Of a DNA stretch of 64,000 nt, positions 15,974-30,667 are shown in pieces; position 1 is the first letter of the stretch; each line of letters starts with the position of its first letter. The stretch comes from Ignavibacteriota bacterium. GTDB taxonomy: Bacteria; Bacteroidota; Ignavibacteria; SZUA-365. Below the pieces are notes generated by a model, which saw only the letters and a list, made by a program, of their open reading frames with translations, ran no database searches and had not been told where the DNA came from. A program made the translations under genes and the position numbers. The DNA lies in NCBI GenBank assembly GCA_016218045.1, contig JACRFB010000040.1:1-64000 (forward strand). Reading direction: 5' to 3'.

Positions 15974-16117
15974 GGAGATAGGATTTAGGAGCTAGGAGCT
16001 AGTAGAGGAACTGGGAGTAGGGACGAGGGAGTAGGGACGGGGGACGAGGGACGGGGGACGAGGGACGGGGGACGAGGGACGAGGGACGGGGGACGAGGGA
16101 CGGGGGACGGGGGAATC
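15974..16117. repeat. Heptamer array (GGAGCTA then GGGACGA/GGGACGG)
   Basis: GGAGATA, GGATTTA, GGAGCTA, GGAGCTA, GTAGAGG are followed, after four bases, by fifteen in-phase heptamers from 16013: GGGAGTA, GGGACGA, GGGAGTA, then GGGACGG/GGGACGA alternation, ending GGGAATC, which merges with the first 105-bp module. It lies upstream of the URO-D-like gene. A near-copy is at 17054-17172. Confidence 0.95.
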
Positions 16118-16390
16118 AGCGGCCGAAGGCCGCAAAAAATAACCTCCGTTCCCTCCGTTCCTCCTGTGTTCGTTTTTCCGATACATTACACACAAAGACC
16201 CGCAACAAAGGACGGTGCCATCAGCGGCCGAAGGCCGCAAAAAAAAACCTCCGTTCCCTCCGTTCCTCCTGTGTTCTTTTTTTTCGTTACACCACGCACA
16301 AACACCGCATCGAAGGATAATCAATCAGCGGCCGAAGGCCGGAAAAAAAACCTCCGTTACCTCCGTTCCTCCTGTGTTCTTTTTTTCCGC
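16117..16390. repeat. Block 1: three copies of a ~105-bp repeat module
   Basis: Modules begin at 16119, 16224 and 16328 (105- and 104-bp spacing). Each has a palindrome GCGGCCGAAGGCCGC, then A6-A9, then ACCTCCGTTCCCTCCG, TTCCTCCTGTGTTC and a T-run. In the third copy the palindrome has decayed to GCGGCCGAAGGCCGG. On the minus strand the palindrome is a stem with a C-UUCG-G tetraloop, but the T-run lies before it, so it is not an ordinary terminator. The block occupies the gap downstream of the small membrane-protein gene. Confidence 0.92.
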
Positions 16391-16976: not shown

Positions 16977-17053
16977 AACGGCTCCTTGTTTCGATGGATA
17001 GTGAGTGGCAAATAATACGAAGAAAATCGAAACCGAGCGCGGAATATGGACGA

Positions 17054-17172
17054 GGGACGAGGGACGGGGGACGGGGGACGAGGGACGGGGGACGAGGGAC
17101 GAGGGACGAGGGACGGGGGACGAGGGACGAGGGACGGGGGACGGGGGACGGGGGAGTAGGGACGGGGGAATC
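17054..17172. repeat. Heptamer array (GGGACGA/GGGACGG), second copy
   Basis: Seventeen heptamers, again ending GGGAGTA, GGGACGG, GGGAATC and merging with the first module of block 2, exactly as the array at 16013-16117 merges with block 1. It lies about 75 bases upstream of the start of the small membrane-protein gene. Confidence 0.95.
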
Positions 17173-17438
17173 AGCGGCCGAAGGCCGCAAAAAAAACCTC
17201 CGCTACCTCCGTTCCTCCTGTGTTCTTTTTTCGTTACACCACACGCAAGCACCATAACGAAGGATAACACCATCTGCGGCCGAAGGCCGCAAAAAATAAC
17301 CTCCGTTCCCTCCGTTCCTCCTGTGTTCTTTTTTTCCTATACACCACACACAAGCACCGCAGCGCGACACGGGGGCGTCAGCGGCCGAAGGCCGCAAAAA
17401 ATAACCTCCGTTCCCTCCGTTCCTCCTGTGTTCTTTTT
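17172..17438. repeat. Block 2: three copies of the ~105-bp repeat module
   Basis: Palindromes GCGGCCGAAGGCCGC at 17174-17188, 17276-17290 and 17381-17395 (102- and 105-bp spacing) are followed by the same A-run and CCTCCGTTCCTCCTGTGTTC segments as block 1. The last copy ends at the stop codon of the L7/L12-like gene. Frames reading through the modules give Arg/Gly/Asn-rich peptides that I regard as non-coding. Confidence 0.92.
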
Positions 17439-17439
17439 T

Positions 17440-18003
17440 TTACAGCATAAACACCAGCACCGCGCCGAGAAGGATCAGCGCGAGCAGCACGCCGAAGAGC
17501 ATGAAGCGCGGACCGCCACTTCCCTCCTGGATCGGCGAGTCGGCTTCCATCTGCCGCGGAGACTGGCGCGTCGCGGGTTTGGAGGCGGTGCTGCGCGACA
17601 TGCCGGACCGTGCGGGCGCCGAGGTGTCGTTGAAGGATGCGGACTCGTGCTGTCGGCGGTAGTTATCCACGGCATCCTTTGCCGCCTTCAGGTCCACACC
17701 CGAAAACTTGCGCAGCAGTTTGATGGCCTCTATCAGTTCGCCGCGCTGCAGGGCCATGATGGCTTCACGCGGAAGCTCAGGGAATCCGGCGGGGAAATCC
17801 GGCCGTGCCGCCGATTGCGCGGGCATCACCTTCGCAGGATCGACAGGGGTGATGAGGCCGCGGCTCTCGTACATCTCCACCGCGTCCTTCGCCTCCTTCA
17901 GCCCGCAGCGATTCGCCTCGCGCACAATCTTTATCGCCTCGATTTTTTGTCCGTACCGCAATGCCTCGATGGCCGCGGGCGGCAACGTAAGCTGGACACT
18001 CAT
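17440..18003 (-). CDS. Membrane-anchored protein with two ribosomal L7/L12 C-domain-like repeats
   Basis: A 187-residue protein. Two copies of a helical motif like the C-terminal domain of ribosomal protein L7/L12 are visible: IEAIKIVREANRCGLKEAKD (about residues 20-40) and IEAIKLLRKFSGVDLKAAKD (about residues 85-105), each followed by AVE/AVD. A flexible Ser/Pro/Arg linker leads to one C-terminal membrane helix (FMLFGVLLALILLGAVLVFML minus the tip). It is not ribosomal L7/L12, lacking the dimerisation domain. I start it at ATG 18003; an upstream in-frame start at 18045 lies in repeat sequence. Tail-anchored in the inner membrane with the repeats in the cytoplasm is the likely topology; function unknown. 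Confidence 0.75.
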   Translation of the reverse strand: MSVQLTLPPAAIEALRYGQKIEAIKIVREANRCGLKEAKDAVEMYESRGLITPVDPAKVMPAQSAARPDFPAGFPELPREAIMALQRGELIEAIKLLRKFSGVDLKAAKDAVDNYRRQHESASFNDTSAPARSGMSRSTASKPATRQSPRQMEADSPIQEGSGGPRFMLFGVLLALILLGAVLVFML

Positions 18004-18017
18004 GGGGATCTCTGCTG

Positions 18018-18152
18018 GTAGATGGGTAGATCGGTAGTGTAGCAAAGTAGAAAGGTAGCAAAGTAAAAGACGCCGTGAACCACTTTGCTACATTGCTACT
18101 TTGCCACTTGTAACGTAAAACGTGTAACGTGGATACGTGTAACGTGTAACGT
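18018..18152. repeat. Mixed 7/8-mer arrays (ACTTTGCT, ACGTGTA, GTAGATG)
   Basis: Upstream of the L7/L12-like gene, short words run head to tail: GGTAGAT-type near 18018-18036, then octamers of ACTTTGCT on both strands (18040-18066 and 18091-18116), then ACTTGTA, ACGTAAA, ACGTGTA, ACGTGGAT, ACGTGTA, ACGTGTA up to the stop codon of the fibronectin-type gene at 18156. Confidence 0.85.
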
Positions 18153-18155
18153 TTT

Positions 18156-20189
18156 TTACCGCCGTCCGGCTTTTTCGAGGCAGCGCGCGCCTTCGCCGCC
18201 GGCGGCTATGGCTGCGACGGAGTAGAAGTACCGGCCGCCGCGGGCTGTGTAGGTGTCGAGGTACTCGGTGTCGGCCTTCGAGATGGATGCGATCCATTGC
18301 GGTTCGTCGTCGGACGGTCCGCGCCGGTATATCGCAAATCCCGTATGTGTCGGATGTTCGACGGGATTCCAGCGCAGGAGTACGCCTCGTTCGGTGGACC
18401 GTGTCGAAAGTCCCTCAGGCGCGGGCACGGGCGGCCACGGCATTTTAATCGAGGAGGGACGCGAGCGCCGACCCTCGATGCCCTCGGCGTTCACAGTGCT
18501 CACCGCATACTGATAGGCGCGTCCCGCCACCACGTTCGAGTCGTCGGTGGGCGGCACGTCGCTGATCTTGAGCAGCACAAAGGCGGTGTCGACCTCGACT
18601 GCGGGCGTCGCGGATTTCTGCTTCGGCACGGGGAGCGCGCGCTGCCGGCGGTACAGCCGGTAATGTTTGATCAATGGATCGACACATGTCATGTCGGTCC
18701 ACGTCAGCCGCACGCGGCTGCCCATGGGCATGGCGCTGATGCCGAGCGGAGCGGGCGGCGCCTTGGGCCGCGCGGGCCGCGCGAAGGTGTTCGCGCTGGG
18801 TTCGCTCTCGAGCTGCGACGTGTTCACCGCGCGCACACAATACGTGTAGGTGAAACGGCCGTCGAGACTGGCCGCCGTGTCGAGATAAGTCGCCTCCTTT
18901 AGTGCCGGTGAAACCTGCACGAGTGAATCGCCCGGACCGTTGGCGCGATACACGAAGTACGCGAAGAGATCACCCTCGGGCACTGCGTCCCAGCGCAAAC
19001 GGATGTGCCGGCCCTCGGTCGCGGCTGCGAGTCCGGTGGGTGCAAGCGGGGGCAGCACCGACATGTGCGAGGCCGAGGCCTGCGTACCACCGGCGTGTTT
19101 CACTCCACGTGTCGTGAGCACACCGAGCCGGTAGTAATACGTCGCGCCCGGCACGACGGCGCCGTCGACAAACACGACCGCGTCGCGGCCCAGCGTGTCG
19201 ATCACCTCAAACTCGATCGACGGTTTCAGCGAACGTTCGAGCACGATGCCCGTGATGTGTCCCCCAGCGGGCAGCGGCGTCCAGGTGAGCAGAATGCCCG
19301 CGCTGCTGTCGCGCGCCGAAAGTCCCTGCACGACGGGCAGACGCAGCCAGTCGACGGTGAAACCGAGCAGCGTGTCGGACGAGGGTCCGGCATTCCCCAC
19401 AAGGTCGAGCGGCTGCAGAAACGCGCGCACGCGGCTGCCGGGCGCGGCGGGTACCCGCATGCGGAAAAAGAGCGTGTCGTTCACACGGCTGCCGAGGAAT
19501 TCGAGAGGCCGCGGAAGAAAGTCGCCGCCGTCGATTTCGGTGTACATCACCGCGCGCTGCGTTTCGCCCGCAAGCGCAGCGGGCACGGCCCAGACAAAGG
19601 ACACTGCGCTGTCGCGCTCGACCGGAGCGGCCGCTGCGCGGAATACGGGGAGCGAGGCGGGCTTGCCCGTCTCGATTTTTCCCACCGGACCGTCACTCTC
19701 GACCGCGCCGTTGCGTATCGCGAGCAGTTTGTACCAGAAGCTGCGCCCGCGCGTTTTCGCCTCGGCACTCTCGTCGCGCCAGGCGGCGCCCATGGCGCGC
19801 AGGAAATTCACGTCGACGGCAAGGAGCCCGTACTCGTCGAGCGCGGGCCGCGCCTTCAACAGCGCGAGCAGATCGTCGTCGCTACGCTGCTGTTTCATCG
19901 CGCGAAGCGCGTCCACAACGGCGTCGCCCGCGATGGCGCGGAACTCCCGCGGCGTGGCGGCCAGCGCCGCGCGGCCGACTTCGGAGAAGGGCCCGTCTTT
20001 CGACGCGGCACGGTGGATGACAAAACCCTGCACGGGTCCCTCGATGCCCGGTCCGATGGCCCTGTCGCCGAGAAACACCACGACACCTTCGGGCGACCAG
20101 CGGAGATTCTCGAGTGACTGCGCGCGGCTCTGCGTAGTGATGCCGGCTGCGACGGCAAGCGTCAGGAGAAGTGCGAATTGTCGAATCAT
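18156..20189 (-). CDS. Exported fibronectin type III-rich protein
   Basis: A 677-residue exported protein. The ATG at 20189 yields the signal peptide MIRQFALLLTLAVAAGITTQSRAQ; the frame is open to 20270 but earlier starts bury it. After a 300-residue region of unknown fold come at least four fibronectin type III-like beta domains, recognisable by repeated VRLTWT / IRLRWDAVP / VLLRWNPVE strands and YYYRLGVLT / YTYCVRAVN / YQYAVSTVN / YFYSVAAIA strands. No sorting domain or membrane anchor is visible; the protein ends ARCLEKAGRR. It is the last gene of the five-gene exported cluster, 40 bases after the giant protein's stop, and may be its binding partner. Confidence 0.8.
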   Translation of the reverse strand: MIRQFALLLTLAVAAGITTQSRAQSLENLRWSPEGVVVFLGDRAIGPGIEGPVQGFVIHRAASKDGPFSEVGRAALAATPREFRAIAGDAVVDALRAMKQQRSDDDLLALLKARPALDEYGLLAVDVNFLRAMGAAWRDESAEAKTRGRSFWYKLLAIRNGAVESDGPVGKIETGKPASLPVFRAAAAPVERDSAVSFVWAVPAALAGETQRAVMYTEIDGGDFLPRPLEFLGSRVNDTLFFRMRVPAAPGSRVRAFLQPLDLVGNAGPSSDTLLGFTVDWLRLPVVQGLSARDSSAGILLTWTPLPAGGHITGIVLERSLKPSIEFEVIDTLGRDAVVFVDGAVVPGATYYYRLGVLTTRGVKHAGGTQASASHMSVLPPLAPTGLAAATEGRHIRLRWDAVPEGDLFAYFVYRANGPGDSLVQVSPALKEATYLDTAASLDGRFTYTYCVRAVNTSQLESEPSANTFARPARPKAPPAPLGISAMPMGSRVRLTWTDMTCVDPLIKHYRLYRRQRALPVPKQKSATPAVEVDTAFVLLKISDVPPTDDSNVVAGRAYQYAVSTVNAEGIEGRRSRPSSIKMPWPPVPAPEGLSTRSTERGVLLRWNPVEHPTHTGFAIYRRGPSDDEPQWIASISKADTEYLDTYTARGGRYFYSVAAIAAGGEGARCLEKAGRR

Positions 20190-20229
20190 GATGTGAGTGC
20201 TTCGAATGGGATGTGACATGGCGGCACCG

Positions 20230-23200
20230 TCAGGGACAGATCGAACAACCGTGGCCCGGCCAATCGACACAGAAATCGAGTCCGGTTTTGGAACTGTACT
20301 TGGCCATCACGGTGGCGCTGAGACATAACTTTCCACCGCAGGGAATGGGGCAGACCTTGCAACTGCTCCACGGCCAGCAGGGATTAAAACAGCCGCACCA
20401 GCAGATCTTGTTTGCACAGGCCGACGAGCAGTCCCCTATCCAGGCCACGATGGATCCGCCCGCCTTGCCGCAGAAGAACCAGCCGCTCGACGGCGAGTAT
20501 GCTCCCGCGATGCCGGCGCTTGCGGTGACGGAAAGACCGGCCACCGATTTGCCCGCTATCGACAGATCGCCGCCTCCGCCCCACGAATTGCCGATCGCCA
20601 GGCCGTACTTGTTGAGAGCGAAGTTCACATGGAACTGCGTCCATGCCTCGTTCTTGTACCATATCGATCCCGAAGCGATGTCGAGGAAATTCCCCGACGC
20701 GGATGCATCGATAACACTCACCACATTCAGATGCGCGCCGTTCACCGTATTGCCATTGCTCAGATATTCCACGGGAATAAACGACGTGTACACATCATAC
20801 TCGGGATGTTTCGCCCTGTTCAGATCGAATCCGACAAACACATTTGTCGTGCTGTTGACAATCTTGAGCATGCTGACCTGCGCCGCGAATCCCACGGCCA
20901 GATAGCTGTCGCCATCCTTGGCGCTGATCGCGATGATCGACTTTGCCTGCGCCTTCATGTTGAGATCGGGAATGATGCTGCCGCCCACGTTTCCTTCCAC
21001 CGAGAAAAACTTGTTCGGGAAATCCATGATCAGTTTTGCATCAGCCACCGGCTGCCCGACGAGTGTCACTATCGCGCCGCCCTCGATCACCGGACCCGAG
21101 CGCACGGTCACCTCGAGCGGATCGATGGCGAGCAGCGCGCCCGTGCCCGCGATGGACAGCGCGCCGCGTACGGTGATGCGGTACTTTTTCTTGTTGTCCT
21201 GCGGATCGGTCAAGTATCCGAAGCCGCCGCCGACTTTTGTCAGAGTCACATAGCCGATCTGTATCGGCGGGATATTCGCCATGAAGTCGGCGGAGAACGA
21301 CGTCTTCGAATACGTCAGCATGAAGTCGAGATTCATCGGCGTGCTGCTGATGCCGATTTTCCCCTTGCCGGTGAAGAAGTTGTTTCCCCAGCCGATATCG
21401 GTTTCAATGGTCGCGGCGGGAATCGAGAAGCCGATCTTCACCTTCTTCATATCGAAGCCGCCGCCCTTCGAGTAGCTGAACTGCCCACCGGCATTCACGG
21501 CCACCATCGGAATTTTCAGGCCGAGTTCGCCGCCCACTTCCACCTTCGGCGTGCCGATGGTCGAGAAGCCTAGCGAATTGAGTGTGAATGTTGCGAGTCC
21601 CGCGAAATCGGCCTTGCTGTTGATCGCCGCGAGCGCCGAGAACTTGCCGTCGGTGCGCACCTCGAAACTCTCGAGCGTGAGCGACTTGTCGAACTTCGGC
21701 AGCGAGAAAGTGCCGCCGCCCGAGATGGAGAGCGGACCGTCGGCGCCGACGGACCCAAGCGCAAACGGCGTGCCGTTGCCCTTGATCTTCATCACCGAGA
21801 ACACGTCGATGCCCGCGTCGGGCAGCGTGAGTGCGCCTCCGTAGATCTGATCGGGCGACACGGTGAGATCGCTCACGGCGATGGTGGTCTTGGACGAGGA
21901 CGGGATGGTGAATTCGAGCGAGCCGCCGAAGGAGAATCCATTGGGCGCAAGTGTGGCGGCATCGAGGGTGAGTTTCCACGTCCCGAGTGTGACGGCCGGT
22001 TTGGGCGAGAGCGAAACGAGCGCGTGTTTGAGGCCGCCCGAATATCCGACCCAGAGGTCCGTTATTGTGAGCGTGGTGGAAGCGAGCAGCGGCACACCCG
22101 TGAACCCGAGCTTGCCCGCGAGATGCAGGCCGTCGGGTTTGAGCGACGATTTTGCGAGGTCGGGCGTGACGGTGAAGCCGTACACCGAAAAACTGATGCT
22201 GCCCTTGCCGAAGACGAGTCCGTCGGACGGAAACGGAAGCGCGCCCGTGCTCACAAACACGGGGATGGCGGGCGGTGTGGCCTGATTGGCGAGCGCGGGT
22301 GTGACGAGGTACAGCGCCTTGGGCGTCATGGTCTCGACTCCGGGCGCTCCTTGCAACATCGTGTTGAGGTCCACATTCACACGCGCGAGGATCTGTCCGC
22401 CGCCCGGCGTCTTCACCACTTCGATGCCGGTGTTGTTGCGCAGGGTCACGGGCACGAGGTCGAAGGCGGCGGCCGCGAGTTCACTCGCATCGGTGACAAG
22501 TTTCCCGCCCTTGGGTTCCGCCTTGCCGCCGAGCACGGTGAGTTTCATATCGGCGAAGGGAATGGTGCTGCCTGGCGGCAGCGAGAAGACACCGTTCTTG
22601 GGAATGTCGACAAAGGCGCCCGAGGCCACGGTGTCCGCCCCCAGCGTCAGCGATTCGATCACCACGGGAAAACCGAGTATGGTGGAGATATCGAAACCCG
22701 CGCTGCCCAAGGAGAAATCGACGGTGGTGGATCCGACCGGGAGATCGACGTTTTTCACATCACCGATCATCCCCTGTTTTCCGGCCTTGAGGGTCTGCGC
22801 ACCCGTGGGCACACCCACGATGGTATACGTCCCGTTGTCCGCCGTCTTGTGATACAGGTCGTCGATACCATCCACTCGCACAAGGGCGTCTTTCACGGGC
22901 AGTGCGGATGCCGTCACCGTCCCGCTCACACGCGCGCCGCGCGCCAGCGCCACGTCGACGCGGGTCGTGTCGCCTTCGTCCGACACCGTTATTGCCGCGG
23001 AGTAGTAGGCGTAGTCGGGCGCTCCTGGAGGCGGCGATTGTGCGCCGAGGGCCTTGAGAATGACGGAGGCCTTGCTGCCGGGTGTGACATGCATGGTGCC
23101 CGTTGCGCCGAACACGCGCAGCGTGATTGCGCCGCCCGGCGCCTTCGGAAAATAGAAACTGCCGTCGGTGCCTGTGATGCCGAGGTCCGCAAAATCGGCG

Positions 23201-25827
23201 AGCACCACGCGCGCGCCGGAGACGGGCGTGTTGTCCAGCTTGTCGCGCACTGTCACCAGCAAACGGCCGATCCTGCGTTTGAGCACGAAGGGTCCGAAGT
23301 TGTTCTGCGGCCCCTGCAGATAATCCTTTGCGCCGCCGCCACCCTTTTGCGACTGCGTCTTGATCTGTTGCACCGATACGACGGTGTCGAGATCCATGTA
23401 CCCCGGCTTCCAGATCTTGATCCCGTGGCTGCCCGCAATATTGCTGCTCTTGAACACGCCCAGTTCGTTTGTCGAAAACGGATCGCCGCCGCTGGACCAA
23501 TGTACGAGCGCACCCGCGACGGGCTGTCCGTCCTCATCGACCACTTTCCCGGATACGGGATTTCCTGCCACATCTATTTCGAGAGGATCTCGTTCCACGA
23601 CCTTTCCCAGAACGTCGAGGAAGATTTTCTCCTTGTATACTTTCTTGATGCCGAAGGCCGTCACCGACAGCTCGTACGCGTCCGTTTCGGGTTCGATACC
23701 CGAGAGGACGAAACGCCCGTCGGCGTCACTCTCGGCGTAGTAGTCGTGTGTCTTGCCTGTGAGAGTAATACCCGCGTGCGACACTGCGGCCTTGGAGTCC
23801 TTCTCGACGATGCGTCCGCGCACGACGGGTTTTGCGCGCGAAAGCTTGAATGTTTTTTCGACCGTGGTGACGCTGCTCCAATAGCCTCCTCCGGTGATTG
23901 CAGAGACGTATGTGGTGAGCGTGTCGTACCCGGGAACACTCACCCGCAGATAGTATCTGTCGTAGGGCCCGCCTTCATTTTGGAAGAGCCGCGTCACGGG
24001 TTGTGGTGCCGTGGCTGCACCGATCAGGAACTGGCCGAAACCCGCAACGGTGCGTATCGGCCGATCGGTGGGCGGGATGAGTCCCTCGTTCACCGTGTTC
24101 GGATTAAACAGGTACCACATGAGCGGCCTGTACACTTCGACCGATGCGGGCTGAGGGACGGCCTTGTTGGTCTGTGCATCCACCGCTTTCGCCCTGAGTC
24201 GGTAGGTTTGTGCGAGCGCAACAACGGTCGGAAACATCCACTTCTGCGCCACGCCTTCAACCTGTTGCAGCGGGATGGGCTGCTCCTCGTAGAGGAAGTG
24301 CGGATCCGACACTTCGAACGACACGCCATTAAATTCGTATGTGACACCTTCTATTTCGATGGCGGGAATGGTGCCGTCGCCCTTGTCAAGGAACGTAAAC
24401 GTGAACTCGCCGTTTTTATCGGTGGTGACGCTGCCGATGGTTATCGTCTTTGTGTTTCCCGAAGGTGGGGGCACGCCTGGCGGAAGATCTAAGATTTTTT
24501 TGGTGATCGTGAGTTTGACGTTCACAAACATAAGCGGGTGGCGCTGATCGGCGGCGTACTCCTCGAGTACGGGATTCCATTCGCCGGGCAAGGTAAGCGG
24601 ACCCGGTTCGCCGGGGGTGCTGTAATTCTTCTTCCCTTTGATGGCGTCAGACATACCAACAGTTGTCGTGCTTCCTCCACCGAAAATGGCAACGTCGTTC
24701 GGTTTGAGCGACACCGCAGCTCCGGTGCCGCCTATGCCCGCATACGTTCCCGCATGCCCCGGCGGTGTGCCGTGGCTGTGTCCCTTCTGCGCTTGCACGA
24801 TGCCGATATACGATTCCTCCTTCGAGATATTCACCTCTGGAACAATGTCGATCTTCTCGCTGACGGACTGCATCATCTCGCTCTTGCGAAACGCCCACAC
24901 AAGCTTCCCCTTGATGCTGCTCAGGGCCTGTTTGAGTTTCCCCGGATCCTTCTGTCCGCCCGGTTTCACGCGCCGATCCGTGTCGACTTGTGCGCCCTTC
25001 TGCGCAATGTCTTCGGAGTAGGCAAAGGAAAACGGTTCCGCCCAGCCGTCCTGTTCACCCAGAGGCCTGCCGTTGTCGTCGATCACCTGCACGCTCCACG
25101 CGTAGTTTTTTGTCACACCCGAGGGTTGAAAATCGGTGGGCCACAGCATCTGCGTGAGCCCTGCGATTTCCTGTTCATACACGGGCATGCCGCTGCGCAG
25201 CAGCGTGCCCGCCGTCTGACCCTGCAGCACCTCGAAGATTTTTACACGATAGCGCGCACCACCCGGGGGCGCGGGCACAACCGGGGTCCACCGGAACGTC
25301 GGCCGCGCCGCTCTGTTCAGCGACGCGCGGTTCTCGGGCGCGAGCAGCGTGGGCAGTTGATACGACGTGACCTGGAAGTTGCGGCAGGCGGGCTGTGAGA
25401 GCGGCTGTGCGCCGCTCGCATCCACGAGATCGACGCAGAGTTCGTAGGTGCCCGCGGGAAGCATGCCTGTGCGCATCGCCGTGCGCTCCACGCCGCCCGA
25501 GAAGGAGACGGCCTCGGGCGGCAGAATCTGATCCGCGTAATACGTGCTCACTCCTGGCGGTACCGACACGACGGGCACGGCGGCGGTGCGTGTCTGCGCC
25601 TTGATGGTGCCGTCGAGCCGCACAATGGCGCGCAGCTTCGCGTCGACGGGAGCACTGCCCGGATTCATCACCGTCAACAGGACGGTCTCGCGGTGTGTTG
25701 CCCAATCCGAAATATACGGGCTCGGTTTTGCCGACATGGTCAGCGTGAGGCGGAGCTGCTGCGCATCCGACGATGCGGACAGGAAAAACACAAACGCGAG
25801 GAGCACGAGTCTCGATATGCGTTTCAT
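20230..25827 (-). CDS. Giant 1865-residue exported protein with cysteine-rich C-terminus
   Basis: A signal peptide (MKRISRLVLLAFVFFLSASSDAQ) is followed by a 270-residue N-terminal domain shared with the small paralogue at 26962-27816; both have PSPYISDW / PNPYLSEW, GMLPAGTYE, VTSYQLPTLL and FRWTPVVPAPPGGARYRV. Residues about 660-1020 hold carboxypeptidase-regulatory-like beta domains (GRIVEKDSKAAVSHAGITL, SGKVVDEDGQPVAGALVHW, TVRDKLDNTPVSGARVVL, SGTVTASALPVKDALVRV). About 1080-1770 is a long Gly/Ser/Thr-rich beta region with repeated strands, plausibly an elongated rod or barrel-like stack. The last 85 residues contain 14 cysteines and end CSICP. No T9SS sorting domain is seen. Probably a long surface fibre or adhesin. 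The N-terminus recalls the TANFOR-type domain of some Bacteroidota surface proteins, which I could not check. Confidence 0.85.
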   Translation of the reverse strand: MKRISRLVLLAFVFFLSASSDAQQLRLTLTMSAKPSPYISDWATHRETVLLTVMNPGSAPVDAKLRAIVRLDGTIKAQTRTAAVPVVSVPPGVSTYYADQILPPEAVSFSGGVERTAMRTGMLPAGTYELCVDLVDASGAQPLSQPACRNFQVTSYQLPTLLAPENRASLNRAARPTFRWTPVVPAPPGGARYRVKIFEVLQGQTAGTLLRSGMPVYEQEIAGLTQMLWPTDFQPSGVTKNYAWSVQVIDDNGRPLGEQDGWAEPFSFAYSEDIAQKGAQVDTDRRVKPGGQKDPGKLKQALSSIKGKLVWAFRKSEMMQSVSEKIDIVPEVNISKEESYIGIVQAQKGHSHGTPPGHAGTYAGIGGTGAAVSLKPNDVAIFGGGSTTTVGMSDAIKGKKNYSTPGEPGPLTLPGEWNPVLEEYAADQRHPLMFVNVKLTITKKILDLPPGVPPPSGNTKTITIGSVTTDKNGEFTFTFLDKGDGTIPAIEIEGVTYEFNGVSFEVSDPHFLYEEQPIPLQQVEGVAQKWMFPTVVALAQTYRLRAKAVDAQTNKAVPQPASVEVYRPLMWYLFNPNTVNEGLIPPTDRPIRTVAGFGQFLIGAATAPQPVTRLFQNEGGPYDRYYLRVSVPGYDTLTTYVSAITGGGYWSSVTTVEKTFKLSRAKPVVRGRIVEKDSKAAVSHAGITLTGKTHDYYAESDADGRFVLSGIEPETDAYELSVTAFGIKKVYKEKIFLDVLGKVVERDPLEIDVAGNPVSGKVVDEDGQPVAGALVHWSSGGDPFSTNELGVFKSSNIAGSHGIKIWKPGYMDLDTVVSVQQIKTQSQKGGGGAKDYLQGPQNNFGPFVLKRRIGRLLVTVRDKLDNTPVSGARVVLADFADLGITGTDGSFYFPKAPGGAITLRVFGATGTMHVTPGSKASVILKALGAQSPPPGAPDYAYYSAAITVSDEGDTTRVDVALARGARVSGTVTASALPVKDALVRVDGIDDLYHKTADNGTYTIVGVPTGAQTLKAGKQGMIGDVKNVDLPVGSTTVDFSLGSAGFDISTILGFPVVIESLTLGADTVASGAFVDIPKNGVFSLPPGSTIPFADMKLTVLGGKAEPKGGKLVTDASELAAAAFDLVPVTLRNNTGIEVVKTPGGGQILARVNVDLNTMLQGAPGVETMTPKALYLVTPALANQATPPAIPVFVSTGALPFPSDGLVFGKGSISFSVYGFTVTPDLAKSSLKPDGLHLAGKLGFTGVPLLASTTLTITDLWVGYSGGLKHALVSLSPKPAVTLGTWKLTLDAATLAPNGFSFGGSLEFTIPSSSKTTIAVSDLTVSPDQIYGGALTLPDAGIDVFSVMKIKGNGTPFALGSVGADGPLSISGGGTFSLPKFDKSLTLESFEVRTDGKFSALAAINSKADFAGLATFTLNSLGFSTIGTPKVEVGGELGLKIPMVAVNAGGQFSYSKGGGFDMKKVKIGFSIPAATIETDIGWGNNFFTGKGKIGISSTPMNLDFMLTYSKTSFSADFMANIPPIQIGYVTLTKVGGGFGYLTDPQDNKKKYRITVRGALSIAGTGALLAIDPLEVTVRSGPVIEGGAIVTLVGQPVADAKLIMDFPNKFFSVEGNVGGSIIPDLNMKAQAKSIIAISAKDGDSYLAVGFAAQVSMLKIVNSTTNVFVGFDLNRAKHPEYDVYTSFIPVEYLSNGNTVNGAHLNVVSVIDASASGNFLDIASGSIWYKNEAWTQFHVNFALNKYGLAIGNSWGGGGDLSIAGKSVAGLSVTASAGIAGAYSPSSGWFFCGKAGGSIVAWIGDCSSACANKICWCGCFNPCWPWSSCKVCPIPCGGKLCLSATVMAKYSSKTGLDFCVDWPGHGCSICP

Positions 25828-25956
25828 GACGGATCCGGTTCAGGCGGGCTTGGAGGAGTGGGTATTGTTCTTTCTCTCCGTTACGGAGGCAAGGAATGGG
25901 CGGGATGTATGCCCGAAAATAAAGTGTACAAAAAAACCGCGTGCGAAATTACAACG

Positions 25957-25992
25957 CGGCCTCGCGGCCGGTGGAAACACCGTGCGAGGCCG
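25957..25992. other. Stable nested hairpin in the giant gene's upstream gap
   Basis: Outer arms CGGCCTCGC (25957-25965) and GCGAGGCCG (25984-25992) enclose an inner stem CGGTG/CACCG (25969-25982) capped, on the plus strand, by a GAAA tetraloop. On the transcribed minus strand the loop is UUUC. It sits between the EF-hand-like gene and the giant gene. A T8 run on the minus strand follows about 20 bases later, too far for a standard terminator. It may limit read-through or stabilise an mRNA end. Confidence 0.45.
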
Positions 25993-26064
25993 TGTTGCAC
26001 TCGACTATGCGCCTCAGGCGTGCGGCGGCTGCTGCACTGCCCGGCGCTCGTATGGCTGATGCCG

Positions 26065-26811
26065 TCACCGGCGACGCCGCGTGGTGGTGGATTTCCTCAC
26101 CGTCACCTTTCCGCCCGGCGACTTCGTGACCGTCGTGCGCGAGCGCACCATGGTGGAACGGTGCGGCGTGTAGTGCACCTTGTGCACTGTGGTGACGCGA
26201 CTCGTGCGGCTCACGGTGAACGACGCGCGTGTGGTCAGATGCACGGTGCGTGTGCGGTACACGGTCACACCCACGGGACGCCAGGGCCGCCACCAGCGCG
26301 GGTACACACCCACGCGCCACACCGACACATAGGGCCGCCACAGGGGACGATACATCCATGTCACGACCGGGAAGAGATGCACGTGTACGGCGGGCACGAT
26401 GTAGTAATTCGGTCCGTATAGTTCCTCGTTTCCGCGTACCTGCATGTTGTACTGGTCGGTGTCGGTTTTCTCGACCTCGATCGTGGCAACATCCTGAAAT
26501 TCATTCTCGCCGAGTACGGCCTGCAAAATCACCAGGCGTGTGTCGTCGCTTCCCTGCTCCACAACGCGCAGGAAATCCACATCGCCGTTCCGGTCGAGAT
26601 CGAGGTTGTTGACGCCCGCATCCGGGTCGTTGAGCCGTTTCTCAAAATCCTCCAGATCCTTGGAATCACGGAAGACCTCGCTGACGGCCGTGAGGTCGAG
26701 TCCTGCGGCAACATCGTCGTCGACAGCGACGGCTTCGGGATCCTTCTGCGCTGAGAGTGTGGCGGTGCAGAGCAGCACCGCGCCGAGAACACAAACAAGC
26801 CGATGTATCAT
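26065..26811 (-). CDS. Exported EF-hand-like protein with Arg/Thr/Trp-rich C-terminus
   Basis: A 248-residue exported protein (signal MIHRLVCVLGAVLLCTATLSAQ). The middle has the pattern DLEDFEKRLNDPDAGVNNLD followed by LDRNGDVDFLRVVE, a DxDxNG loop resembling a single EF-hand; this head is common in uncharacterised Bacteroidota proteins. After a hydrophobic stretch with YYIVPAVHVHLFPVV comes a Trp/Arg-rich part (WRPYVSVWRVGVYPRWWRPW), and the last 70 residues are almost all Arg, Thr, Val, Ser and Lys, ending in TTRRRR. The tail should be strongly basic outside the cytoplasm. It lies within the exported cluster between the small paralogue and the giant gene. Role unknown. Confidence 0.75.
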   Translation of the reverse strand: MIHRLVCVLGAVLLCTATLSAQKDPEAVAVDDDVAAGLDLTAVSEVFRDSKDLEDFEKRLNDPDAGVNNLDLDRNGDVDFLRVVEQGSDDTRLVILQAVLGENEFQDVATIEVEKTDTDQYNMQVRGNEELYGPNYYIVPAVHVHLFPVVTWMYRPLWRPYVSVWRVGVYPRWWRPWRPVGVTVYRTRTVHLTTRASFTVSRTSRVTTVHKVHYTPHRSTMVRSRTTVTKSPGGKVTVRKSTTTRRRR

Positions 26812-26961
26812 GACAATACTCCTGTGACGTTGGGTTGGAAGTCCGGCACACGCGGACGTGGAAGCTCGTCCCGCCCTGCCGTCTGTGTCTAGGACTCTGA
26901 CGCCGGGCGGAGGTTTAACGTGCGACGTGTTCCAGCCGGAATACGGTCACGTTGAACCACA

Positions 26962-27816
26962 TCATTTTGTCGACGACGAAGCGCGGAACGTAACAAGAAA
27001 CGGCTCCGAAAATCCGTGACCATCGCCGAGGGGCCTCCCGGCGAGATCGAGTGTCTGCACGGACCATAGAAGTTCTCCCGGCTGATCCGGCAGCGGGACA
27101 TCGGCGGGCCACACGAGCTGTGTCATCGAGCGCACCTCCACATCCATGATCGGCTGATTGGCGCGGAAGGCCTGCATCGGTTTTTGTCCGGGCAGAATTT
27201 CGAAGAGCAGCACGCGATACACCGCGCCTCCCGGCGGCGTCGGGATGATGGGCGTCCAGCGGAACACCGGCCGCTGTCCGGGGAGGAGGGGGATCGGAGC
27301 GGCGCCTGCGTCGGCCGCGGCCACGCCGGGCTGCAGCAGTGTCGGAAGCTGGTAACTGGTCACGGTAAAGAGGCGGCAGACGGGTCCGCTGATCTGTTCA
27401 TCCTGCGCATTGAGCAATGTGACACAGAACTCATAGGCACCCGCGGGCAGCATGCCCGTGCGCTGCGCCACCTCGTCGACATTGCCGTAGAATTTCACGG
27501 CCCCGCCCGGCACAATTTCATCGGCGAGGAAAAGACTGACACCCGTGCCAATGGAGAGCAGCGGCATTTTGCCCGTTTCGGTCTCGGCCTTGAGCACACC
27601 GTCGACAAAAACACGCGCCGAGATGCGGGCCTGGACGGGTGCGCCCGTGAGATTGGTCACAGTGAGCATGGCCGTTTCGCGGCGCGCCTCCCATTCCGAG
27701 AGATACGGATTGGGGCGCGCGGAGACGTTGAGCGACAGGGTGATCCCCTGCGCCGCGGCGCACAGCGGCGCGGCAAGCAGGAACACGAGGGCGAGGAAGG
27801 GTTTTATACGGATCAT
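26962..27816 (-). CDS. Small exported paralogue of the giant protein's N-terminal domain
   Basis: A 284-residue protein starting at ATG 27816 with AGGAG 8 bases upstream and a signal peptide (IKPFLALVFLLAAPLCAAAQ). It consists only of the domain that opens the 1865-residue protein, with the same order of landmarks: RPNPYLSEWEARRETAMLTV, GMLPAGAYEFCVTL, VTSYQLPTLL, FRWTPIIPTPPGGAVYRVLL, LLWSVQTLD and GFSEPFLV. The domain looks like two beta-sandwiches. It probably arose by duplication and may assemble with, or compete with, the giant's N-terminus. No anchor is seen. Confidence 0.8.
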   Translation of the reverse strand: MIRIKPFLALVFLLAAPLCAAAQGITLSLNVSARPNPYLSEWEARRETAMLTVTNLTGAPVQARISARVFVDGVLKAETETGKMPLLSIGTGVSLFLADEIVPGGAVKFYGNVDEVAQRTGMLPAGAYEFCVTLLNAQDEQISGPVCRLFTVTSYQLPTLLQPGVAAADAGAAPIPLLPGQRPVFRWTPIIPTPPGGAVYRVLLFEILPGQKPMQAFRANQPIMDVEVRSMTQLVWPADVPLPDQPGELLWSVQTLDLAGRPLGDGHGFSEPFLVTFRASSSTK

Positions 27817-27862
27817 GCGCGGACTCCTGAAAACACACGCGGCAGTGTCGCGGGCGCGACAC

Positions 27863-27947
27863 ACGCGCCGCGGCGCGTGGCGTAATGGGACATGGGTGTC
27901 GGATTATCGGACATGGTTGTCGGAGTATGTCCGCGCGCCGCGGCGCG
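27863..27947. promoter_or_regulatory. Two 14-bp palindromes flanking two 21-bp-spaced direct repeats
   Basis: ACGCGCCGCGGCGCGT (27863-27878) and CGCGCCGCGGCGCG (27934-27947) share a perfect 14-bp palindrome and lie 70 bases apart. Between them GGACATGGGTGTCGGA (27888-27903) and GGACATGGTTGTCGGA (27909-27924) repeat with a 21-base period. The unit fills the gap directly upstream of the small paralogue gene, after the barrel gene's stop, so it could be an operator or a processing/termination element. Inference from structure only. Confidence 0.4.
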
Positions 27948-27955
27948 GCGGACGG

Positions 27956-29779
27956 TCAGAATGTTGTGGCGAGCGACGTCTGGACAAAGAGTTCGTTGAA
28001 GGTGCTTCCAGGACGCGTGCGAGATGGTGCGTATTCGTAGGCATTGTTTGACACTGCCACGTTCCAGGTCAGCGCCTTGGCCACCTGCCAGCGCAGGGAG
28101 AGGCGCACATAGATCTGCGCGTCATTGCCGCGTTCGTCGCCGGGCACGTCGACGCGGCTTTGTGACCACGTGAGGGCGAACGACGGCGCGAGACGTCCGG
28201 CGAGGAAACGGTACGAAGCGCCGAGAGTGGCGCTGAGCAGCGTGAGCGGTCCCGACGGCAGGTCGTTGGTGAGCCGGTTCACCGAGGCGTTGAGCGCGAG
28301 AGGAAGCCGGATGAAAGAGGCGCTGTAGAGGGCCATGAGCGATTGTGTCACGTTGCTGTTCGCCGCGCCCGACACCACGTTGTAGTCGTCGAAGATGTCG
28401 CGCGCGTACGAAGCCGACACTGTATGTATCACCGCGTCGGTCGGAATCGTGTAGGTGGGCGTGAGGTTGAGCGACTGCGCCACGCTTTCGATGCGGAGCG
28501 TGTCGCTCGACGTGTTGTTGCGCACGCCGAAGTTCGAGTAGCTCAGAGACACCGAGACGTCGTCGTTGACGATGCCGAGAGCGTTGAATGACCCGATGAA
28601 CTGATTCGAGGTTTCTGATTTTGTGTCCGCAAGATTGTTTGTGCGGTTGCCCACGGTCGCGTTCACGTTGAGGCGGTTCTCGAAAAGCTGTACACGCGGC
28701 GAGAGTGCGAACTCGAGGCGGTCGGGCTGGAGAAACGGATATCCCAGCGCCACATACCCCGCGCCGATATAGCGCGCGAGTGCGCGGACACCCCAATCGG
28801 GCTTGGTGATGGTAAAGGCGAGCATTCCGGCGTAGTCCTGCCTGCTCGATATCCGCTGCCGGATGATACCGTTCAGCGCCTTGTCGGCATTTGCAAGATC
28901 GGTCGCGTTCATGTCGTGCGTAAAAATCGACGTGCCGGCCTCGCCGGTCAGATACATGATCTCGCTGAGCTTCACGCGTGTATTCGCGGTGATGAGCGCG
29001 CCCTCCTGAGGATCGACGCCGGCAACGGGTCGCGCCACCGAACGCGCGTCGTCCTTCGCGCGCACGAAGTTCAGATCGACGTGGCTCCCGTCCTCGCTCC
29101 CGTATCCGAGCTTCGCGAGATAGATCCAGCGCGCATACGCTCCGCGGATATTCGCGGCCGAATCGGGCTCGATCGAGCGCTGAATGGTGCCTGCCGAGGC
29201 AGAGAAGCGCACCTTGCCCGGACGAAGGTCGAATCCGGCGCCGAACACCTGGCCGTCACCCGACGACAGTTCGGAATACATCGGCACATGAGTCCCGATG
29301 TGAAACGACGCCCACGACAGGCGCGGGGATATGCGGAGCATGCCTATGGTGTTGCCCGGATTCTGCAGGAACGACGCAAAGGACGACGACGACGAGGCGG
29401 GTGTCGTCACCCCTGTTTCACGGCTCGAAAGCATGATGTTGAAGGGCAGCGTGAGCCAGTCGCCCACGGTGACAGTTGGTGTCAGAATGAGCCGCCAGAG
29501 ATTGGCCGGGCGTCTCGGACGATTCGCGCCATCCGGATCGGACTCGAACATGTACACATCGCCGGTGAGTGTGGCGCCCCCGCTCACGCGCACCGATCCG
29601 GCCCCTTCCTCCGAGGTGCCGCTCGAGTCGGGCGGCTGTCGCTCCTGTGCCATCGCACCGCCAGCACATAGAAGCGTCAGTAAGGCGACGCCGGCGGTGA
29701 AATACATAACACGGCGCAGCAGGCCGGTTGCCCGCGCACGTGTATACAAGAAGGTTTTGACTGCGATCACATGTGCCAT
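27956..29779 (-). CDS. Outer-membrane beta-barrel-like protein
   Basis: A 607-residue exported protein. After a long signal region ending GGAMAQE comes an acidic linker, then about 540 residues of alternating short strands (for example LWRLILTPTVTVGDWLTLPFN, NLTPTYTIPTDAVIHTV, ASYRFLAGRLAPSFALTW). The protein terminates in an aromatic, SLATTF, as expected for an outer-membrane barrel. Start 29779 is kept; an ATG at 29707 would give a more compact signal peptide. It is the first gene of the exported cluster. Together with the giant and its paralogue it could be the membrane channel or anchor for the fibre. No family name is claimed. Confidence 0.75.
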   Translation of the reverse strand: MAHVIAVKTFLYTRARATGLLRRVMYFTAGVALLTLLCAGGAMAQERQPPDSSGTSEEGAGSVRVSGGATLTGDVYMFESDPDGANRPRRPANLWRLILTPTVTVGDWLTLPFNIMLSSRETGVTTPASSSSSFASFLQNPGNTIGMLRISPRLSWASFHIGTHVPMYSELSSGDGQVFGAGFDLRPGKVRFSASAGTIQRSIEPDSAANIRGAYARWIYLAKLGYGSEDGSHVDLNFVRAKDDARSVARPVAGVDPQEGALITANTRVKLSEIMYLTGEAGTSIFTHDMNATDLANADKALNGIIRQRISSRQDYAGMLAFTITKPDWGVRALARYIGAGYVALGYPFLQPDRLEFALSPRVQLFENRLNVNATVGNRTNNLADTKSETSNQFIGSFNALGIVNDDVSVSLSYSNFGVRNNTSSDTLRIESVAQSLNLTPTYTIPTDAVIHTVSASYARDIFDDYNVVSGAANSNVTQSLMALYSASFIRLPLALNASVNRLTNDLPSGPLTLLSATLGASYRFLAGRLAPSFALTWSQSRVDVPGDERGNDAQIYVRLSLRWQVAKALTWNVAVSNNAYEYAPSRTRPGSTFNELFVQTSLATTF

Positions 29780-29991: not shown

Positions 29992-30633
29992 TTATTTGAC
30001 GCCGCTGTTTGCCACTGCGTTGAACTGGAAGCTGATATTCTCGGCCACCTTCTGTCCGACAAGCTGATTCTTCACGCCGAAGTCGCTGAGCGAGACGGTG
30101 CCCTTAGCACGCACAACAAGCAGGTCGCCCGCGGCGCGCGCCTTCGTTTTCTCCGACTCCTTCATGTAGATGAGGGTCACGGGCATTTCCATGTTTTTCG
30201 TGACGCCGTGCATCGTGAAGGTGCCGACGGCGGTGCCGTTGATCTCGGTGCCGTTCTTCACCTTGGCGCCCTTGAGTTTCAGAAGCTTGAATTCGATGGT
30301 CGGGAACTGCTTCGCGTTCAGCCAGCCCTCGCTGCGGAGATGCTCGTCGCGCATGTCGATGCCGGTCTTCATCGAGGCTACGTCGACGGTGACGGTGGCG
30401 CTGATCGTCTTGGCGACATCCGACGGATCGAAACTCACCGTGCCGCCGAGGCCCGCCGCGGTGCCCGCGATGTCTTCCACCAGCGACTCCGAAAGGAAGC
30501 TGGCCTGGTTGCGGCCGCGGTCGTCCTTGATGTTGAATGTGAGCGTGCCCGTGCGGTCGGTGCTGAGGCGCTGCGCTGCGGCGGGCGCCACAAGGGCGGT
30601 GACGAGCAGAAGAGCGGCGAGGATCTGTTTCAT
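29992..30633 (-). CDS. YceI-family periplasmic lipid-binding-like protein
   Basis: A 213-residue exported protein. The ATG at 30633 has GGAG 8 bases upstream; a TTG four codons earlier is less likely. After the signal peptide (MKQILAALLLVTALVAPAAAQ) comes the YceI lipocalin-like barrel, recognisable by GTLTFNIKDDRG, TVTVDVASMKTGIDMRDEHLRSEGWLNAKQFPTIEFK and GTFTMHGVTKNMEMPV. Family members bind polyisoprenoid or amphiphilic chains in the periplasm, and some respond to stress; the ligand here is unknown. Confidence 0.95.
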   Translation of the reverse strand: MKQILAALLLVTALVAPAAAQRLSTDRTGTLTFNIKDDRGRNQASFLSESLVEDIAGTAAGLGGTVSFDPSDVAKTISATVTVDVASMKTGIDMRDEHLRSEGWLNAKQFPTIEFKLLKLKGAKVKNGTEINGTAVGTFTMHGVTKNMEMPVTLIYMKESEKTKARAAGDLLVVRAKGTVSLSDFGVKNQLVGQKVAENISFQFNAVANSGVK

Positions 30634-30667
30634 GGTGTTCTCCAAATCGTGTTGATGATTGATGGTA

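What the first reader, a model, noticed from the sequence alone, without database searches (positions are those of the whole stretch)
18156..29779. Candidate undescribed cell-surface system of five exported proteins
A minus-strand run encodes an outer-membrane barrel, a small protein identical in architecture to the start of a giant 1865-residue protein, an EF-hand-like basic protein, the giant itself with a 14-Cys end, and a fibronectin III-rich protein. All have export signals. Barrel plus short paralogue plus giant rod suggests a fibre with its own outer-membrane exit or anchor. The shared N-domain recalls the TANFOR-type domain from memory only.
Basis: partly seen in the sequence, partly recalled or inferred. 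Interest (0 to 1): 0.68.

Follow-up and report, generated by a model that had tools for sequence, protein, structure and literature searches.

The report
TANFOR surface giants with barrel partner
This gene cluster encodes a large pore-like outer-membrane protein together with giant exported proteins that share one docking domain, and the same partnership recurs across the Bacteroidota, which gives a first testable candidate for how a known class of giant surface and toxin proteins leaves or sits on the cell.

Summary
The five ORFs are real and co-directional. Three kinds of gene form a conserved operon in Bacteroidota: an undescribed barrel (AlphaFold2: 26 strands, pLDDT 81), a giant with an N-terminal TANFOR-type domain, and a ~700-aa FnIII protein. 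In 296 genomes, strong barrel hits occur in 70 and the TANFOR domain in 69, with 68 holding both; 60 of 101 barrel genes have a TANFOR gene 0-2 kb downstream, and 4 are one fused ORF (TANFOR first, barrel second). The host genome has three such modules. The EF-hand-like protein is a local insertion, not part of the core. TANFOR proteins are a published class of polymorphic toxins whose exit route was only guessed to be the type IX secretion system (PMC7073777); that paper mentions no barrel. Here the barrel also sits next to TANFOR loci of that kind. The window's giant has no toxin domain, immunity gene or type IX signal, and its Cys-rich C-terminal 750 aa is conserved in a distant relative. 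It therefore looks like a surface/adhesin member. Best reading: the barrel is the dedicated outer-membrane partner that TANFOR domains dock to, for export and/or anchoring. Docking, direction and location are inferred.

The parts
27956..29779 (-). Outer-membrane beta-barrel, 607 aa, first gene of the module; no Pfam, NCBIfam or PDB sequence relative
   Evidence: AlphaFold2 pLDDT 81, 26 strands; alternating short turns and long loops, lumen face more conserved than lipid face; no accepted family match
26962..27864 (-). Short TANFOR-domain protein, about 284 aa (likely ATG at 27816): the docking domain on its own
   Evidence: 48% identical to the giant's N-domain; two beta-sandwich domains, pLDDT 88; TANFOR homology
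26065..26811 (-). EF-hand-like basic exported protein, 248 aa; local insertion, not part of the conserved core
   Evidence: found in only 4 other relatives, at places without a barrel hit; no homologue in the first 52 module loci
20230..25827 (-). Giant TANFOR protein, 1865 aa: signal peptide, TANFOR domain, CarboxypepD_reg repeats, conserved beta-rich C-terminal 750 aa with Cys-rich end
25018..25827 (-). Giant residues 1-270: signal peptide and TANFOR domain
23098..23853 (-). Giant residues about 659-910: CarboxypepD_reg-type beta-sandwich repeats
   Evidence: (Pfam PF13620, E 4e-30)
20263..22524 (-). Giant residues about 1102-1855: C-terminal region conserved end to end with a giant from a more distant family of the phylum, including the Cys-rich end
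   Evidence: (L150), alignment; the Runella plasmid giant has a Cys-containing end of similar look
18156..20189 (-). FnIII-rich exported protein, about 677 aa, last gene of the module, 40 bp after the giant's stop
   Evidence: Pfam fn3; family present after the giant in most module loci

Best explanation
A conserved cell-envelope module in which a dedicated 26-stranded outer-membrane barrel is the partner of proteins bearing an N-terminal TANFOR domain. SHOWN: the operon barrel - TANFOR protein(s) - FnIII protein, its wide conservation in Bacteroidota, the near-obligate co-occurrence, and the natural TANFOR+barrel fusions. INFERRED: all products cross the inner membrane by Sec. The TANFOR domain (two beta-sandwiches) docks at the periplasmic mouth or in the lumen of the barrel; the predicted topology puts the barrel's N-terminus in the periplasm, and fusions place TANFOR exactly there. 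The barrel then passes the giant out and/or holds it at the cell surface, and the FnIII protein assists assembly or forms part of the external structure. The short TANFOR protein is a stand-alone plug or adaptor that occupies the same site. In this window the cargo is a non-toxin, mostly beta giant, so the likely end product is a surface-displayed adhesin-like rod. In some Flavobacteriaceae the cargo at such loci is a polymorphic toxin. Rough split within this reading: dedicated export pore 40%, anchor or shuttle that works with the type IX translocon 45%, other envelope role for the barrel 15%.
For: Co-occurrence in an even phylum sample: 68 of 70 barrel-positive genomes also have TANFOR, 69 TANFOR-positive, Fisher p 1.6e-63, phylogeny not corrected. 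Linkage: 60 of 101 barrel genes have TANFOR 0-2 kb downstream on the same strand, 24 more within 20 kb, 4 are fused; the set of closer relatives gives 38 immediately adjacent and 9 fused. Gaps in many loci are about -40 to +30 bp, as in operons. Barrel and TANFOR distances correlate with r=0.96 over 50 pairs. Barrel model with 26 strands; odd loops are mostly long and even turns short, which fits a periplasmic N-terminus; the lumen face is more conserved, p 8e-5. TANFOR model pLDDT 88. TANFOR identity. FnIII family in the same operons. OmpA/PorE-like gene after the short TANFOR gene in Flavobacteriia and Sphingobacteriia, as PorE-like genes stand beside PorP-like genes in type IX systems (PMC9143113). 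The same three genes lie on a plasmid of the cultured Runella sp. SP2, all annotated hypothetical.
Against: No physical interaction, surface location or secretion has been shown. A gene cluster can reflect shared regulation only. A few genomes hold barrel without TANFOR or the reverse, and 11 of 101 barrel genes have no TANFOR on the same contig and strand, in part because contigs are short. The barrel-TANFOR distance correlation is confounded by species phylogeny. The barrel lacks any known translocation accessory domain. A recurrent cousin operon pairs a similar barrel with FecR and CHASE2-cyclase genes, which would fit sensing as well as display.
Confidence: 0.6

Rival explanations
1. The giant is a polymorphic toxin of the TANFOR class and the cluster is an interbacterial weapon with its delivery parts.
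For: The N-domain is homologous to TANFOR. TANFOR loci in Flavobacteriaceae carry toxin ends such as a colicin/pyocin DNase domain (L139), and at several such loci the barrel lies next to the TANFOR gene. Published class (PMC7073777).
Against: The window's giant and 17 other barrel-linked giants show no toxin domain in Pfam. The window giant's C-terminus is conserved end to end in a distant relative, not swapped. The gene after it is the conserved FnIII protein, not an immunity gene.
Confidence: 0.12
2. The barrel is a shuttle/anchor that takes TANFOR proteins from the type IX translocon, a functional counterpart of PorP/SprF with type B substrates.
For: SprA is present in 118 of 119 genomes searched, including this one. 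The gene layout (substrate gene beside a barrel gene, often with an OmpA/PorE-like gene) resembles type B pairs. An SprB-repeat/CTD protein stands next to the barrel in Flavobacteriaceae.
Against: No type A or type B C-terminal signal in 18 giants or 17 FnIII proteins. The barrel is predicted with 26 strands, whereas PorP-like barrels have 14, and it matches no PorP model. SprA is universal in the class, so its presence is not informative.
Confidence: 0.3
3. The barrel is itself the export pore, working like two-partner secretion in the split form and like an autotransporter in the fused form.
For: Dedicated adjacent barrel; a ~270-residue N-terminal domain shared by all cargo; fusions with N-terminal TANFOR and C-terminal barrel; a 26-strand barrel is wide enough in principle; conserved lumen face.
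Against: No POTRA, ShlB/TpsB or TPS-domain match. Fused proteins carry only the TANFOR domain, not a long passenger.
Confidence: 0.28
4. The barrel and TANFOR protein form a sensor or uptake complex rather than a display system.
For: A recurrent cousin operon joins a TANFOR-like protein, a FecR-domain protein, a larger barrel and a CHASE2 adenylate/guanylate cyclase.
Against: In the window no FecR or cyclase gene was recognised beside the module; neighbours of other modules were not all scanned. Giants of 1600-4000 aa of mostly beta domains fit surface structures better than ligand uptake. No TonB plug domain was matched.
Confidence: 0.12

Closest known systems
TANFOR-class polymorphic toxins (TIGR02542; Jana, Salomon and Bosis 2020, PMC7073777)
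   Same: N-terminal TANFOR domain on a large Sec-exported protein; FnIII domains in the neighbourhood; T9SS present in the genome
   Different: The window giant has no toxin tip or immunity gene and a conserved C-terminus; the published main text mentions no barrel partner; the match to TIGR02542 stays far below its curated cut-off
Type IX secretion type B substrates with PorP/SprF shuttles and PorE (PMC9143113, PMC12618676)
   Same: Surface giant paired with an adjacent outer-membrane barrel; OmpA/PorE-like neighbour in Flavobacteriia
   Different: Recognition part would be an N-terminal domain, no type B CTD; barrel predicted with 26 strands instead of 14; no PorP family match
Two-partner secretion (type Vb) and autotransporters (type Va)
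   Same: Dedicated barrel beside a giant with a shared N-terminal domain; fused and split forms both exist
   Different: No POTRA, no TPS domain, no known TpsB or autotransporter family match
LptD-LptE plug-and-barrel pair (from general knowledge)
   Same: 26 strands and a small partner protein
   Different: No LptD match in Pfam or PDB sequence search; comparison of folds could not be run

Membership tests
TANFOR polymorphic toxins | TIGR02542 over its curated cut-off (67 bits) | tested here: not met
   Window domain 16.5 bits, E 0.0058; best family member E 5.4e-5
TANFOR polymorphic toxins | Homology of the N-domain to TIGR02542-positive proteins | tested here: met
   hhalign probability 99.5, E 2.7e-23 over 257 columns; intermediate sequence G033:C1 matches both. 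The reference proteins are themselves below the cut-off (27-38 bits)
TANFOR polymorphic toxins | N-terminal Sec signal | tested here: met
   By inspection of the sequence only
TANFOR polymorphic toxins | Variable C-terminal toxin domain | tested here: not met
   No toxin family; C-terminus conserved in a distant relative
TANFOR polymorphic toxins | Immunity gene downstream | tested here: not met
   Downstream gene is the conserved FnIII protein
Type IX secretion substrates | Type A or type B C-terminal sorting domain | tested here: not met
   No Por_Secre_tail or CHU_C match in 18 giants and 17 FnIII proteins nor in the window proteins
Type IX secretion substrates | Type IX machinery in the genome | tested here: met
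   SprA in the own genome and 118 of 119 genomes searched
PorP/SprF shuttles | PorP/SprF family match and 14-stranded FadL-type barrel | tested here: not met
   No family match; model has 26 strands
Two-partner secretion (TpsB) | POTRA domains and TpsB barrel; TPS domain in the partner | tested here: not met
   No such Pfam match for barrel or giant; the model shows no soluble domain before strand 1
Two-partner secretion (TpsB) | Barrel translocates its adjacent partner | not testable with these tools
   needs a secretion assay
Outer-membrane beta-barrels | Transmembrane barrel with alternating lipid and lumen residues | tested here: met
   (prediction; closure of the barrel not inspected)
EF-hand proteins | EF-hand model match | tested here: not met
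   No Pfam EF-hand match for the 248-aa protein; loop present by eye only

The most novel reading that the evidence does not exclude
The barrel is the pore of a separate outer-membrane secretion pathway of Bacteroidota: a two-partner-like system with an N-terminal TANFOR export domain that is neither type V nor type IX, used for adhesin-like giants in one branch and for antibacterial toxins in another, with an autotransporter-like fused form.
Probability: 0.28. Interest if true: 0.88.

Novelty: new variant of a known kind. Interest (0 to 1): 0.7.

Why it matters
How TANFOR proteins leave the cell has been open since 2020, with type IX secretion offered only as a hypothesis. A barrel family with no accepted Pfam or NCBIfam match, which almost always co-occurs with TANFOR and is sometimes fused to it, turns that question into simple gene-removal experiments. 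It would also add a second kind of barrel-plus-giant surface system beside SprF/SprB in this phylum, and it gives names and boundaries to large genes now annotated as hypothetical in environmental and cultured species.

Tried and rejected
(1) Toxin reading of the window's giant: no toxin family; the only PDB sequence hits were exotoxin A entries at E 0.2 or worse, treated as chance. (2) Five-part system: dropped, since the EF-hand-like protein is not associated with the module in relatives. (3) Promoter scan: one site against 3.1 expected, uninformative. (4) Type IX co-occurrence as evidence: SprA is in nearly all genomes of the class, so it cannot discriminate. (5) TIGR02542 family scan of 247 genomes: only 3 genomes, none over the cut-off; replaced by the session's own alignment, which finds 87 of 296. 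(6) A 31-row TANFOR alignment was too diverse for the contig scan; an 8-row version worked. (9) Fused proteins were not folded because they came from genomes outside the list allowed for that tool. (11) A plasmid search with the barrel gave only two weak hits, one of which proved to be a complete module; phages gave none for TANFOR.
Full report
WHAT IS THERE. The five minus-strand ORFs exist as described: barrel 27956-29779, short protein 26962-27864, EF-hand-like protein 26065-26811, giant 20230-25827, FnIII protein 18156-20270. From the signal-peptide positions the likely starts of the short and FnIII proteins are 27816 and 20189, so the FnIII gene starts 40 bp after the giant's stop. Pfam sees CarboxypepD_reg repeats in the giant and fn3 in the FnIII protein, and no accepted family in the barrel or short protein. 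The last 120 residues of the giant hold 14 cysteines. The short protein matches the giant's N-terminal 264 residues at 48% identity, E 2e-72.

ORGANISM. The window lies in a 4.77-Mb assembly of 72 contigs. Contigs that the named scan shares with the same-class genomes are mostly labelled Ignavibacteria, Candidatus Kapaibacterium or Chlorobiota.

CO-OCCURRENCE. In 119 relatives the barrel is found in 66 genomes and the giant in 67. Of 104 barrel places, 38 have a TANFOR-type gene within 400 bp downstream on the same strand, 25 more lie within 20 kb, and 9 share one open frame. The giant search scored only three candidates per genome, so these are lower bounds. With profiles over the same 296 Bacteroidota genomes, strong barrel hits fall in 70 genomes and TANFOR hits in 69, with 68 in common; Fisher p is 1.6e-63, uncorrected for phylogeny. 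Weak barrel hits (a larger relative, see below) were left out after seeing them. Sixty of 101 barrel genes have TANFOR 0-2 kb downstream.

OPERON. Maps of 68 barrel loci (selected because they hold these genes, a few duplicated) show three layouts. (a) Barrel, giant, FnIII, often with overlapping or 5-30 bp gaps, in Kapaibacteria/Ignavibacteria and several other families, with giants of 1600 to 4100 aa. (b) In Flavobacteriia and Sphingobacteriia: giant, companion (704-aa FnIII or another exported protein), barrel, short TANFOR, and in 13 loci an OmpA/PorE-like protein of about 510 aa. (c) In one Flavobacteriaceae group: an upstream gene that in the one case scanned is an SprB-repeat protein with a type IX tail, a barrel of about 817 aa with an extra C-terminal helical-looking region, a TANFOR giant, and a small gene in the immunity position. 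The window has barrel, short TANFOR, EF-hand-like, giant, FnIII. The FnIII proteins form one family by iterated profile search. The EF-hand-like protein occurs in only four other relatives and has no homologue in the first 52 module loci examined, so it is not core. The own genome holds two more modules, on contigs 18 and 60.

FUSIONS. In seven mapped loci one ORF of 850-895 aa carries a TANFOR domain (residues about 8-260) followed by the barrel. This is the strongest single hint of a physical partnership, and it fixes the order: TANFOR lies before the first strand.

STRUCTURE. The barrel model (31 sequences) has mean pLDDT 81 and 26 strands from residue 63 to 606. Odd loops are mostly long and even turns short, and the protein ends in phenylalanine, so both ends are expected in the periplasm. 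The putative lumen face is more conserved than the lipid face, p 8e-5. The TANFOR model has pLDDT 88 and is read here as two beta-sandwich domains. Neither family has a PDB sequence relative.

IDENTITY OF THE SHARED DOMAIN. TIGR02542 gives only weak scores to the window proteins (domain alone E 0.0058), but 20 of 31 relatives match it, best 5e-5. A profile comparison with TIGR02542-matching proteins gives probability 99.5 over 257 columns. TANFOR proteins are published as polymorphic toxins with a hypothesised type IX exit; that paper's main text has no mention of a barrel and lists SprB, FnIII and type IX tails as enriched neighbours (PMC7073777). The barrel, lacking any domain model, would have been invisible to a domain-based analysis. 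One TANFOR protein here ends in a colicin/pyocin DNase domain, with a short 336-aa barrel ORF just downstream.

IS THE WINDOW'S GIANT A TOXIN? Probably not. No toxin family is found in it or in 17 other barrel-linked giants. Its residues 1102-1855, cysteine-rich end included, align end to end with a giant from a more distant family of the phylum (L150), and the cultured Runella plasmid giant ends in a Cys-containing stretch of similar look. A toxin tip would be expected to differ. The next gene is the conserved FnIII protein. None of the giants or FnIII proteins scanned has a type IX sorting tail.

MECHANISM. The commitment is a docking model: TANFOR binds its barrel from the periplasmic side, and the barrel exports and/or anchors the giant. 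Whether the route is the barrel itself or the type IX translocon SprA (present in 118 of 119 genomes, hence uninformative) is left nearly even. The PorP/SprF pairs are the closest working analogy (PMC9143113, PMC12618676): one barrel per giant, gene neighbours, sometimes a PorE-like peptidoglycan-binding protein. Membership fails on the tail, on strand number and on family match. Two-partner secretion is the other analogy and fails on POTRA and TPS domains.

RELATED OBSERVATION. A larger barrel (about 745-930 aa) that scores weakly with the profile sits in a recurrent operon: TANFOR-like protein of 340-400 aa, FecR-domain protein, barrel, and in the two downstream genes scanned a CHASE2-cyclase. 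FecR was recognised beside the barrel in 9 of the 11 loci examined, across Flavobacteriaceae and the window's class. It suggests that the TANFOR-barrel pairing is old and leaves a sensing role open.

LIMITS. Co-occurrence is not corrected for phylogeny; the barrel-TANFOR distance correlation (r 0.96) is confounded by species history; signal peptides were judged by eye; no experiment was run. The paper search covered open-licence papers only.

Noticed in passing
L152, L154, L156, L157, L159-L163: A recurrent operon of a TANFOR-like protein, a FecR-domain protein, an 800-930 aa barrel and (where scanned) a CHASE2 adenylate/guanylate cyclase: possibly a cell-surface signalling system related to the finding.
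   Followed up: partly
L164 (Runella sp. SP2 plasmid pSP2_2), 8785-18870: Barrel, giant (2151 aa) and FnIII genes of the module on a plasmid of a cultured species, all annotated as hypothetical proteins.
   Followed up: yes
L087:2061-8189: A 2043-aa protein with PKD repeats and a C-terminal class-C beta-lactamase-fold domain sits inside a Flavobacterium TANFOR module between the TANFOR protein and the barrel.
   Followed up: no
window 16019-16389 and 17048-17440: Two copies of a composite repeat: a 7-bp minisatellite (AGGGACG / GGACGAG) followed by about 2.6 units of a 105-bp repeat.
   Followed up: no
L121:2770-14850 (G023:C46): A giant TANFOR frame of about 4050 aa is interrupted by one TAG codon after the first part of the TANFOR domain.
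   Followed up: no
L134, L135, L136, L137, L138, L140, L141: The barrels of a Flavobacteriaceae group carry an extra, helical-looking region of about 270 aa after the last strand.
   Followed up: partly
L072 (JADZEY010000042.1): A contig labelled Armatimonadetes bacterium has the same length as a contig of a genome in the window's class; the public label looks wrong.
   Followed up: no
window 17440-18045: Protein with two segments resembling the ribosomal L7/L12 C-terminal domain, by eye, downstream of the module.
   Followed up: no
window 29992-30645: YceI-family protein directly upstream of the barrel on the same strand; not seen as part of the conserved module.
   Followed up: no
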